This document shows positions 26,258-29,403 of a stretch of 64,000 bases of DNA, piece after piece. How positions within the stretch are numbered: position 1 is the first letter of the stretch; the number at the start of each line of letters is the position of its first letter. The stretch lies in NCBI RefSeq assembly GCF_000214355.1, contig NC_015577.1:3711389-3775388 (forward strand), written 5' to 3'. The notes beneath the pieces are model-generated. The model ran no database searches, was not told the DNA's origin, and was given only the letters and a program-made list of their open reading frames with translations. Origin of the DNA: Leadbettera azotonutricia ZAS-9. Lineage in GTDB: Bacteria; Spirochaetota; Spirochaetia; Treponematales; Breznakiellaceae. A program made the translations under genes and the position numbers.

Positions 26258-26380
26258 GGTTAACTCCTGCATCAATCATAACAACTACCAAGATTCCATA
26301 TACTACACCAAAATAAAGATAGTGTCTATTTCCGAATTCACCACGTATCAGGCTGCACCCCTATGCATATAGAGACAAAA

Positions 26381-26518
26381 ATCAATAACCCCGCCGCAAG
26401 CCACGAGGTAAGCTGTTCTCTTAAGGAATTGGACTCGGGGGTTAATGCCTTTTTAACCGCCCCAAGGCTCCCCTGCGAAGCAGGCTCTTGGGTATTAACC
26501 CCCTCGCCACGAATAAAA
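26381..26518. repeat. 138-bp palindromic repeat, copy A (intergenic)
   Basis: This stretch is about 90% identical to 28922-29059. Its core pairs as GGGGGTTAAT/ATTAACCCCC, then CCCAAG/CTTGGG, then CCTGC-TTC-GCAGG, giving a long cruciform. Read on the minus strand it is open and would encode NTQEPASQGSLGAVKKAL, as in copy B. The rest of the 26,258-26,629 gap has no gene I can support. Confidence 0.85.
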
Positions 26519-26629: not shown

Positions 26630-27229
26630 ATGACTATTAGAAACATGGAACCAGAAGACATTGATGAAGTGCTTTCTGTAGCGGATTCTGCATTTTTTAA
26701 TGAAGAACTATATAAGTGGACAACACCAAATGATAATGACCGGACTGATTTTATAAAAACCTTTTTTCAATACAGATTAAAAAATGCTTTTGAGGAAAAA
26801 ATAATGCAAGTTGCTATTGATGATATAGGAAAAATTGCAGGTGCCGCAGTATGGGTCCCTCCAATTAAAGAAAAAAATAATGGAGAAAAATCATTTGATT
26901 TTGAAGAGATGATTTCAAGATTTAGTAATGATATACGTGAACGTTGTTATAAATTTGTTTCTACTGTTATAAAAGCAGAAAACTATTTTACTCAGCCATA
27001 TTGGGATTTAGGCCCTGTCTTTGTTAATAAAAGGATGCAGGGAAAAGGGATCGCTTCCCTTTTAATCCGCAGCCAATTAAAAAAGATAGATGAAACACAT
27101 TCGCCTTGTATACTTGTAACACAGGAAAAAAATAATATTCAAATTTATGAAAAATATGGTTTTAAAGTTGCTATAAAAATACCCATAGAAGAATCAAGGC
27201 TCATAAGTTATGGAATGATACGTAAATAG
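26630..27229 (+). CDS. GNAT-family N-acetyltransferase
   Basis: 199 residues. The N-terminus MTIRNMEPEDIDEVLSVADSAF and the acetyl-CoA loop RMQGKGIASLLI (Q/RxxGxG/A) at about residues 132-143 define a GNAT fold, with the closing strand IQIYEKYGFKVA. Substrate unknown. The gene is AT-rich compared with neighbours, in keeping with acquisition. The gap before it has a palindromic repeat but no clear promoter. Confidence 0.8.
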   Translation: MTIRNMEPEDIDEVLSVADSAFFNEELYKWTTPNDNDRTDFIKTFFQYRLKNAFEEKIMQVAIDDIGKIAGAAVWVPPIKEKNNGEKSFDFEEMISRFSNDIRERCYKFVSTVIKAENYFTQPYWDLGPVFVNKRMQGKGIASLLIRSQLKKIDETHSPCILVTQEKNNIQIYEKYGFKVAIKIPIEESRLISYGMIRK

Positions 27230-27274
27230 AAATATTATAAATATAAGGAAAAATACCATATAGAGCTTAATCTG

Positions 27275-28615
27275 GGCCTGTCCTGAAGTTTGTGTAAATG
27301 GCCAAAATATGGTAGAAATACCAAGGAGACAAAATGGCCAGTACACGAAAACTGAAAGAGAAGGATCTGATCGACCAAATACTCGATCAGATAGACCTTA
27401 AAGGAATGACCCAGGAAGAAATCCTTGGACAGGAAGGATTATTAAAGCATCTGACAGGGAAGCTGCTAAGCCGTGTCATGAATGCTGAAATGGACGAGCA
27501 TTTGGGGTATGAAAAGAATTCCAACGCCGGGGACAATTCGGGGGACAGCCGAAACGGGTACAGTGAAAAGACAGTCCTGACAGAGAATCAGAGTGCAGTG
27601 ATACAGGTACCACGGGACCGCAATGGAACGTTCGAACCCAAGATACTGGCGAAACACCAAAGACGGCTCCCTATATTTAACGACCAGGTTATTTCGATGT
27701 ATTCCTTTGGGATGACCGACCGGGATATTAAATCACACCTGGAAAAAATATATAACGTGGAAGTCTCCCCTGAATTGATAAGCCGTGTCACTGCAGCGGT
27801 GATGGAAGAAGTGAAGGAGTGGCAGAATCGGCAGCTGGAAAAATCTTATGCCATCGTGTATTTGGACGCCCTGAGGGTCAAGACCAAACAGGACGGGAAA
27901 AGCTGTACCAAGAGCGTCTATGTGGCTCTGGGAGTGAATTTCGAGGGTCAGAAGGAGGTATTGGGCCTTTGGATAGCGGAGAACGAAGGGGCTAAGTTCT
28001 GGATGGGCGTCCTGAACGAAATAAAGAACCGGGGAGTGGAAGACATACTCATCGCTTGCATGGACGGCCTTACCGGTTTCCCCGAAGCGGTTCGGGCAGT
28101 ATTTCCCAAGACCCGTATCCAATTGTGCATTGTCCACATGGTGCGTAATTCCACCAAGTTTGTTTCCTGGAAAGACCTGAAAAAAATCTGTGCCGATCTT
28201 AAGGCCATATATTCGGCAGCCACCGAGGAAGCCGGCCGTGACGCACTGGAAGAATTCGGCAAGATATGGGATGCCAAGTACCCGATGATATACCAGTCCT
28301 GGGATACCCACTGGGATGACTTAAGCGAGTTCTTTAAATACCCGCCTGAAATCCGCAAGGCAATTTACACGACAAATGCAATTGAGTCATTAAATTACCA
28401 GCTGCGAAAAGTCACAAAAAACCGCTCGACATTTCCGAACGATGATGCTATATTTAAGATATTGTATTTGGCAATTAGGAATGCGTCAGAGAAATGGACA
28501 ATGCCGGTACGGGATTGGGGGATGGCGCTCAACCAATTCGCTATTATTTTTGGCAATGAACGGGTTCCGTTCTAAATAATTCATTGCCATTTACACAAAA
28601 ATTCGGACACGTCCC
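27275..28615. mobile_element. IS256-family insertion sequence
   Basis: 1341 bp. Imperfect terminal inverted repeats of about 29 bp (both ends share TTTGTGTAAATGGC on the inner side and end GGG...GTCC). The 8-bp sequence TTAATCTG occurs on both sides (27267-27274 and 28616-28623), the target duplication size typical of IS256. One intact transposase gene inside, so the element may be active and recently inserted. Confidence 0.9.
27334..28575 (+). CDS. IS256-family transposase
   Basis: 413 residues, full length for the Mutator/IS256 family. AGGAGA upstream of the ATG at 27334. Conserved segments of the DDE core: IVYLDALRVK, LIACMDGLTGFPEAV, VFPKTRIQLCIVHMVRNS (the C-x2-H signature) and YTTNAIESLNYQLRK with the final Glu. 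No frameshift. Confidence 0.95.
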   Translation: MASTRKLKEKDLIDQILDQIDLKGMTQEEILGQEGLLKHLTGKLLSRVMNAEMDEHLGYEKNSNAGDNSGDSRNGYSEKTVLTENQSAVIQVPRDRNGTFEPKILAKHQRRLPIFNDQVISMYSFGMTDRDIKSHLEKIYNVEVSPELISRVTAAVMEEVKEWQNRQLEKSYAIVYLDALRVKTKQDGKSCTKSVYVALGVNFEGQKEVLGLWIAENEGAKFWMGVLNEIKNRGVEDILIACMDGLTGFPEAVRAVFPKTRIQLCIVHMVRNSTKFVSWKDLKKICADLKAIYSAATEEAGRDALEEFGKIWDAKYPMIYQSWDTHWDDLSEFFKYPPEIRKAIYTTNAIESLNYQLRKVTKNRSTFPNDDAIFKILYLAIRNASEKWTMPVRDWGMALNQFAIIFGNERVPF

Positions 28616-28692
28616 TTAATCTGAAAAAGATGAATAAATAAAACAGAATTTATTTCGGTGCTTTTGACGCAGATTTTTGCTTATATTTTTTA

Positions 28693-29403
28693 TCAAGAAT
28701 ACGGAAAATCGTGTTCCATATATACTAAATATTTTGAATGTTTTAATATACTTTTATTTACCAATTTATAGTCTAATTCCTCGGATAAATCAAAATCAGG
28801 TGTATCTGTTTCCGCAATTTTCGTCAAATATGCTTCGTGCATATTCATGCTATAATAATATGCACTTTTTGATATAGCTATAGGCATTTCTTTATATTTC
28901 AAATTTGTTTCTACAAATTCAATCAACAACCCTGCGGCAAGCCGCGAGGTATGTTGTTCTCTTAAGGAATTGGACTCGGGGCTTAATACCTTTTTAACCG
29001 CCCCAAGGCTCCCCTGCGAAGCAGGCTCTTGGGTATTAACCCCCTCGCCATGAATAAAACCTGTTTTCACATCAATTTCTATCAAATATTTTGGATATTT
29101 ATTAAAAAATTTTTTTAAAATAGTGTTCGCCAATGTTCCTTTTTCTTGTCCTAAATTATTCATTAATATTTCTCTATTAGGTTTTATACAATAATGTTCT
29201 TTATATGAATAAACGCACAAACCCAAATGATTCATTTCACAAACATAAAATTCTTCAAGTTTAAATAAATTTGAGCACATTGTTTTTAATATATTTTTAT
29301 CTTCTGAAATATTTTTTAATATATTTCCAAATATGTCAATGAATGCTTCGGCAATATTTTCCTCTTTGTTTTCATTTAAATCTTTTGTAAGTTTAATTTC
29401 CAT
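28693..29403 (-). CDS. Hypothetical protein with an in-frame repeat insertion
   Basis: 236 residues. The two flanks (residues 1-114 and about 160-236) are AT-rich, Lys/Asn/Ile-rich and look like one normal protein. The middle 46 codons, from about GEGVNTQEPASQG to AAGLLI, come exactly from repeat copy B and have quite different base composition. No known domain. The insertion keeps the frame open, so the protein could still be made. It ends just beyond the IS256 element. Confidence 0.55.
   Translation of the reverse strand: MEIKLTKDLNENKEENIAEAFIDIFGNILKNISEDKNILKTMCSNLFKLEEFYVCEMNHLGLCVYSYKEHYCIKPNREILMNNLGQEKGTLANTILKKFFNKYPKYLIEIDVKTGFIHGEGVNTQEPASQGSLGAVKKVLSPESNSLREQHTSRLAAGLLIEFVETNLKYKEMPIAISKSAYYYSMNMHEAYLTKIAETDTPDFDLSEELDYKLVNKSILKHSKYLVYMEHDFPYS
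28922..29059. repeat. 138-bp palindromic repeat, copy B (inside a coding sequence)
   Basis: Nearly identical to 26381-26518 and equal to 46 codons, it lies in frame within the 28693-29403 gene. The same nested palindromes are present. This resembles Rickettsia palindromic elements, which insert in frame into genes, though no sequence relation is claimed. Confidence 0.85.

What the first reader, a model, noticed from the sequence alone, without database searches (positions are those of the whole stretch)
28922..29059. A 138-bp palindromic repeat lies in frame inside a gene and keeps it open
Seen: copy B (28922-29059) and copy A (26381-26518) are about 90% identical, 138 bp each (46 codons), with nested palindromes. 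Copy B lies within the 236-residue gene on the minus strand, in frame, adding about 46 residues of different composition. Copy A is also open on the same strand with preceding in-frame codons. Known: Rickettsia palindromic elements behave this way. Inference: a coding-compatible selfish element in a spirochaete.
Basis: partly seen in the sequence, partly recalled or inferred. Interest (0 to 1): 0.85.

Follow-up and report, generated by a model that had tools for sequence, protein, structure and literature searches.

The report
Mobile hairpin element that enters genes
A 114-132 base, hairpin-forming piece of mobile DNA, found throughout Treponema-type spirochaetes and apparently not described before, inserts itself precisely at a six-base signal and sometimes lands inside a gene without breaking the reading frame, so the protein simply gains about 40 extra amino acids.

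Summary
Copies A (26380-26517) and B (28921-29058) are 94% identical, and about 17 full copies plus fragments are dispersed in this 3.86-Mb genome. The family occurs in 74 of 197 genomes of the order. In a 296-genome sample of the phylum, all but one of the carriers belong to that order. It is not in Rfam, and I found no description in the open-access papers searched.

Copy B is an exact 132-nt (44-codon) in-frame insertion in a GNAT-acetyltransferase-family gene. Five orthologues lack it. The same happened in a phosphofructokinase, a DegT aminotransferase, PurL and an IS256 transposase; other copies break genes. Two DNA-level empty sites show the rule: insertion 3' of a TTNATT hexamer, no target duplication, element ending TTGATT. 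Fifteen of 25 base pairs covary, the sense strand is the folded one, and copies favour one orientation to replication (56/78).

This behaves like single-strand (IS200/IS605-like) transposition. However, this genome has no detectable Y1 transposase, so the mobiliser is unknown. It works like Rickettsia palindromic elements but is not shown to be one. One correction: the interrupted GNAT has lost its acetyl-CoA motif, so 'open' does not mean 'functional'.

The parts
28921..29052 (-). Copy B, inserted body: 132 nt = 44 codons, CATGGCGAG...GTTGTTGATT, in frame inside the GNAT-family gene
   Evidence: 44-residue gap in five orthologues; covariance-model match 153 bits over 28921-29058
29053..29058 (-). 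Target hexamer TTTATT 5' of copy B (codons F-I)
   Evidence: 5' hexamer is degenerate NTNATT across copies while the 3' end TTGATT is fixed; present once in empty sites
28921..28926 (-). 3' terminal hexamer TTGATT of copy B
   Evidence: 129 of 133 full copies end TTGATT
28971..29050 (-). 5' structured domain of copy B: outer helix TGGC/G.CCA, tandem G.A, long stem, variable inner hairpin
   Evidence: covarying helices 1-2 of A1 and 1-3 of A3
28924..28956 (-). 3' hairpin of copy B (CAACATACC...GGTTGTTG)
   Evidence: covarying helix 3 of A1, helices 4-5 of A3
26380..26517 (-). Copy A with its 5' target hexamer (26512-26517); intergenic
   Evidence: 94% identical to copy B; 143 bits
28693..29403 (-). 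Interrupted GNAT-family gene, 236 aa open frame; lacks the R-x-x-G-x-A acetyl-CoA motif of its orthologues

Best explanation
The segment is one copy of a non-autonomous mobile element family of the order that holds the treponemes. The element is 114 nt (short form) or about 132 nt (long form, extra inner hairpin). Its sense strand folds into a compound 5' stem and a 3' hairpin joined by a conserved unpaired linker. It inserts immediately 3' of a TTNATT hexamer, adds no target duplication, and always ends in TTGATT, so its own 3' end is a new target and tandem copies can form. [quoted passage not shown] When it lands in a gene, the common forms (114 or 132 nt) keep the frame, and they usually have at least one stop-free frame on each strand, so a fraction of insertions only add 38-50 residues; selection removes many of the others. 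Shown: dispersal, precise insertion rule, in-frame gene insertions, conserved structure, orientation bias. Inferred: single-strand intermediate, trans-acting enzyme, selfish rather than useful role.
For: Dispersal; eight copies with identical or near-identical bodies in this genome. Empty sites: GNAT orthologues, exactly 44 residues missing; PFK, ten orthologues missing exactly 38 residues; DNA-level empty sites with the hexamer present once, L363 of G076 against the copy of L116 and G072 against G087. 5' hexamer varies (TTTATT 73, TTGATT 26, TTCATT 8) even among copies with near-identical bodies, 3' hexamer fixed 129/133: the 5' hexamer is target, not element. Tandem junctions TTGATT|CGTG. 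Structure: 97.9% of cells paired, 15 of 25 pairs with compensatory changes, slid controls 24-51% paired. G.T wobbles 95 against A.C 24, so the sense strand is the one that folds. Orientation: 56 of 78 copies in four complete genomes agree with the lagging-template orientation, p=1.5e-4, without matching co-orientation to flanking genes. In-frame insertions in PurL, DegT, PFK, IS256 transposase and GNAT. IS608 and ISDra2 insert into the lagging-strand template and recognise subterminal hairpins (PMC6006769).
Against: No Y1_Tnp in this genome, and Y1 presence is not associated with the element across 197 genomes (odds ratio 0.56, p=0.057). No autonomous version found within the fetched loci. The orientation bias is strong in this genome (23/28) and weak in others (19/27, 8/12, 6/11). 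No guide sequence for the 5' end was identified. No presence/absence polymorphism between strains of one species could be tested.
Confidence: 0.7

Rival explanations
1. It is a remnant of an IS200/IS605 or REP/RAYT system whose Y1 transposase was present when the copies spread and has since been lost from this genome, or is supplied now and then by visiting DNA.
For: Target next to one end, no duplication, two subterminal hairpins, sense-strand folding and replication orientation are the IS200/IS605 pattern (PMC6006769). 92 of 197 genomes of the order carry Y1_Tnp.
Against: Carriers without Y1 include this genome with near-identical recent copies. No positive association. The Y1 loci examined carry no significant element ends next to them. 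No GTAG tag.
Confidence: 0.4
2. It is an integron recombination site (attC) that was scattered by an integron integrase.
For: Treponemes carry chromosomal integrons; 115- and 132-bp 'long attC' sites were predicted in T. brennaborense and T. succinifaciens (PMC3607928); attC sites also recombine as folded single strands.
Against: PMC3607928 reports no integron in T. azotonutricium or T. primitia, the species that G000 and G060 most resemble by size, and those genomes carry 28 copies each. The two ends do not pair with each other as R''/R' do, copies are dispersed rather than arrayed, and no GTTRRRY core lies at the insertion point.
Confidence: 0.05
3. It is a functional regulatory RNA or terminator kept by selection, dispersed only as a by-product.
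For: Strong covariation; copies are scarce between divergent genes, 6 of 117 non-genic copies.
Against: Near-identical copies next to unrelated genes, gene-internal copies in either orientation, empty orthologous sites, species with no copy at all. No Rfam match.
Confidence: 0.08
4. The segment is a normal domain of the protein.
For: It is in frame and open.
Against: All five aligned orthologues lack it; the same DNA lies in unrelated genes and between genes.
Confidence: 0.01

Closest known systems
Rickettsia palindromic elements (RPE; protein-coding palindromes)
   Same: 100-150 bp palindromic interspersed repeats that occur in frame inside unrelated protein genes and also between genes, with no known dedicated transposase (PMC10969869; PMC3733652).
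   Different: Different bacterial phylum and different sequence. RPEs end in a CGTC tag (PMC3733652), which this element lacks. Here the insertion rule (TTNATT, no duplication, TTGATT end) and the covarying fold are resolved, and in-frame and disruptive gene copies are about equally frequent in my sample.
IS200/IS605-derived non-autonomous elements, REP/REPIN with RAYT (TnpA-REP)
   Same: Subterminal hairpins, target at one end, no target duplication, orientation tied to replication; REP sequences can also sit in frame inside tnpA-REP genes (PMC6006769).
   Different: No Y1 transposase in this genome, no association with Y1 across the order, no GT[AG]G tag, and a far larger 5' structure with a conserved linker.
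Classical bacterial MITEs (Correia, RUP, ISs with TIRs)
   Same: Short, non-autonomous, many copies.
   Different: No terminal inverted repeats and no target-site duplication.
Integron attC sites
   Same: Folded single-strand recombination sites of similar length exist in treponemes (PMC3607928).
   Different: Two separate stems rather than one R/L stem, dispersed not arrayed, and abundant in species reported to lack integrons.

Membership tests
Rickettsia palindromic elements | Short interspersed palindromic repeat, about 100-150 bp, multiple copies | tested here: met
Rickettsia palindromic elements | In-frame insertion in unrelated protein-coding genes | tested here: met
   GNAT, PurL, DegT, PFK, IS256 transposase
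Rickettsia palindromic elements | Terminal CGTC tag reported for R. conorii RPEs | tested here: not met
   ends are TTNATT|CGTG... and ...TTGATT; tag described in PMC3733652
Rickettsia palindromic elements | Sequence homology to an RPE family in Rickettsiales | not tested
IS200/IS605 or REP/RAYT elements | Insertion 3' of a short target without duplication | tested here: met
IS200/IS605 or REP/RAYT elements | Subterminal hairpins on one strand | tested here: met
IS200/IS605 or REP/RAYT elements | Orientation bias to the lagging-strand template | tested here: met
   56/78, p=1.5e-4 pooled; individually significant only in this genome
IS200/IS605 or REP/RAYT elements | Y1 (HUH) transposase in the host or in an autonomous relative | tested here: not met
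   none in this genome, no association in 197 genomes, no autonomous copy seen
TIR-type MITE | Terminal inverted repeats and target-site duplication | tested here: not met
Integron attC site | Arrays next to intI with R''/R' core GTTRRRY | tested here: not met
   dispersed copies, no such core at the junction; integron reported absent from T. azotonutricium and T. primitia (PMC3607928)

The most novel reading that the evidence does not exclude
An order-wide class of structured single-strand mobile elements that is moved by an enzyme other than the known Y1, DDE or integron recombinases, and whose reading frames have been shaped to be tolerated inside genes (mean stop-free frames per copy 1.30 against 0.76 in shuffles, net length a multiple of three in 74 of 128 distinct copies; copies are related, so this is suggestive only).
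Probability: 0.3. Interest if true: 0.82.

Novelty: new variant of a known kind. Interest (0 to 1): 0.68.

Why it matters
Protein-coding palindromes have been treated as a peculiarity of Rickettsia and its relatives. An independent, unrelated family in another phylum, in cultivable species, shows that frame-compatible insertion is a repeatable way for mobile DNA to add segments to proteins, including core enzymes such as PurL and phosphofructokinase. The insertion rule found here turns the open question of how such elements spread into one that can be tested. It also gives annotators a model for about 30 repeats per genome, some of which may now be annotated as hypothetical protein segments or, possibly, as 'long attC' sites.

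Tried and rejected
Rfam search of seven element loci found nothing. Y1_Tnp as the mobiliser: none in this genome, no association in 197 genomes. Autonomous copy: 5' and 3' ends separated by up to 6 kb were sought in all fetched loci; the only two pairs were an N-filled assembly gap and a diverged copy with an internal insertion. Viral contigs: no match. A first loose regular expression gave false element boundaries and was replaced by a profile search. The G090 and G037 sites orthologous to one G087 copy hold a different 0.7-kb segment and were not counted as empty sites; G072 was. Literature: searches for Treponema palindromic or interspersed repeats and for the core sequence string found no description; the original RPE paper (PMC186582) is not held.

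Full report
Observation. The window holds two 138/139-nt copies, 94% identical, at 26380-26518 and 28921-29059. Copy B lies in frame inside the 236-aa minus-strand ORF 28693-29403. The genome is a single contig of 3,855,671 bases. That length matches what I remember for Treponema azotonutricium ZAS-9, and likewise G060 (4,059,867) for T. primitia ZAS-2 and G087 (2,843,201) for T. denticola ATCC 35405; these three names are from memory, not from a tool.

Family. Blastn finds 38 places in the own genome, and a covariance model built from 20 copies (A1, R1) finds 28 at E<=0.1, 17 of them above 100 bits. The common short form is 114 nt after the target hexamer; the window's copies and one more have an extra inner hairpin (132-133 nt). 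Eight copies in this genome have identical or near-identical bodies. The model hits 74 of 197 genomes of the order and 24 of 296 genomes sampled from the phylum, all but one of them (a 73% complete assembly with one hit) in the same order. No viral contig matched and no Rfam family matched.

Insertion in the window gene. Orthologues of the N-terminal 114 residues exist in the same family. Five were aligned. Each is about 190-200 aa and reads ...KTGS-IEFVATN... where the window reads ...KTG[FIHGEG...GLL]IEFVETN...: a gap of exactly 44 residues = 132 nt. One orthologue matches Pfam GNAT families. The interrupted protein has lost the R-x-x-G-x-A acetyl-CoA loop of its orthologues (KYRRMGMA became KYKEMPIA). 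Its C-terminal half has diverged more than its N-terminal half (35-39% against 46-50% identity to the three closest orthologues), whereas among uninterrupted orthologues the C-terminal half is at least about as conserved as the N-terminal half. So the frame is open, but the enzyme is probably no longer a normal acetyltransferase. An uninformed reader should not infer retained function from openness here.

Other gene insertions. Among 164 distinct copies, 135 full length, four more sit in frame in recognisable genes: PurL between synthetase and glutaminase parts (L055), a DegT/DnrJ/EryC1 aminotransferase (L142), a PfkB-family sugar kinase (L205) and an IS256/Mutator transposase (L200). For L205 ten orthologues lack exactly the 38 extra residues. 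For L142 solved homologues align on both sides of the segment and not within it. Three of these use the antisense frame, two the sense frame. Other copies interrupt genes out of frame or with stops: a VOC-fold gene in L134, an IS transposase in L230, and long unassigned ORFs in L128, L214 and L252. Five of ten is more than the 15% expected if each full copy fell into a gene in random phase and orientation (p about 0.011), which is what selection against broken genes would give. Copies also have more stop-free frames than dinucleotide shuffles (1.30 against 0.76) and net lengths divisible by three in 74 of 128. The copies are related by descent, so I treat these last two as suggestive.

Insertion rule. 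The 5' hexamer before CGTG is TTTATT in 73 copies, TTGATT in 26, TTCATT in 8 and other NTNATT variants in most of the rest; it differs even among copies with near-identical bodies. The 3' end is TTGATT in 129 of 133. Bases beyond are not conserved. Two DNA-level empty sites settle the boundary. L363 reads ...AAAAATC-TTTATT-TTTAAAATC..., and the occupied L116 reads ...aaaaatc-TTTATT-CGTG...GTTG-TTGATT-tttaaaatc. G072 reads ...TATATAATC-TTCATT-TCTCGG..., and the occupied G087 reads ...tatataatc-TTTATT-CGTG...GTTGATT-tcttgg. Thus one hexamer is the old target, the terminal TTGATT comes with the element, and there is no duplication. Because the element's end is itself TTNATT, head-to-tail junctions TTGATT|CGTG occur, and two hits in G060 overlap by exactly six bases.

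Structure. RNAalifold gives three helices with 10 compensated pairs. On 96 distinct aligned copies, 97.9% of cells pair, 15 of 25 pairs have changes on both sides, and the covariation score is 0.283 against 0.097 in shuffles and 0.03-0.05 in slid controls. This alignment was fitted to the model; on the unfitted A1 the figures are 95.3% and 0.296 against 0.127. Wobble G.T cells (95) exceed A.C cells (24), so it is the sense strand that folds.

Replication. Origins and termini were placed by GC skew from 12-kb samples. In this genome 23 of 28 copies, and in four complete genomes 56 of 78, have the sense strand on the lagging-strand template (p=0.0009 and 1.5e-4). Flanking genes show no matching co-orientation (upstream 51 same, 46 opposite; downstream 29 same, 48 opposite). 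The other three genomes are not individually significant.

Mechanism. Target at one end without duplication, hairpins read on one strand and lagging-template orientation are together the pattern of IS200/IS605 single-strand transposition (PMC6006769). That is what it works like. Membership fails on the enzyme: no Y1_Tnp in this genome and no association across 197 genomes (28 of 74 carriers against 64 of 123 non-carriers). No autonomous copy was seen. I therefore commit to single-strand transposition by an enzyme supplied in trans, identity unknown, at about 0.7, and leave lost or visiting Y1 transposases as a version of that.

Comparison. The nearest analogue in behaviour is the Rickettsia palindromic element (PMC10969869, PMC3733652). 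This family lacks the CGTC tag of RPEs and lives in another phylum; homology was not testable. An integron origin is unlikely, since T. azotonutricium and T. primitia are reported to lack integrons (PMC3607928), but the 115- and 132-bp 'long attC' sites that paper predicts in two other treponemes are of the length of this element and deserve comparison.

Limits. Collection scans were truncated, many relatives are draft assemblies, copies are not independent, and the literature search covers only open-access papers.

Noticed in passing
window 27266-28622: Complete IS256/Mutator-family insertion sequence (transposase 27334-28575, terminal inverted repeats 27274-27302 and 28586-28614) between copies A and B, apparently flanked by an 8-bp direct repeat CTTAATCT at 27266-27273 and 28615-28622.
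   Followed up: partly
window 26630-27229: A second, intact GNAT acetyltransferase gene beside copy A, unrelated in position to the interrupted one.
   Followed up: no
G087, G037, G090, G072: In the T. denticola group the first about 41 or 86 nt of the element recur many times on their own or joined to a different 3' part, suggesting solo 5' hairpins and mosaic subfamilies.
   Followed up: no
L038, L159, L137, L179, L020: Compact 70-90-nt forms that lack the inner hairpin of the 5' domain but keep both ends.
   Followed up: no
L041, L060, L144 (181 nt): Longer forms with an extra block of hairpins inserted in the 5' domain.
   Followed up: no
several MAG contigs, e.g. L171, L176, L185, L193, L203: Contigs end within about 120 nt of the element's 3' hairpin, i.e. 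at the element itself, as expected of a high-copy repeat that breaks short-read assemblies.
   Followed up: no
PMC3607928: Predicted 'long attC' sites of 115 and 132 bp in T. brennaborense and T. succinifaciens may be this element rather than integron sites.
   Followed up: no
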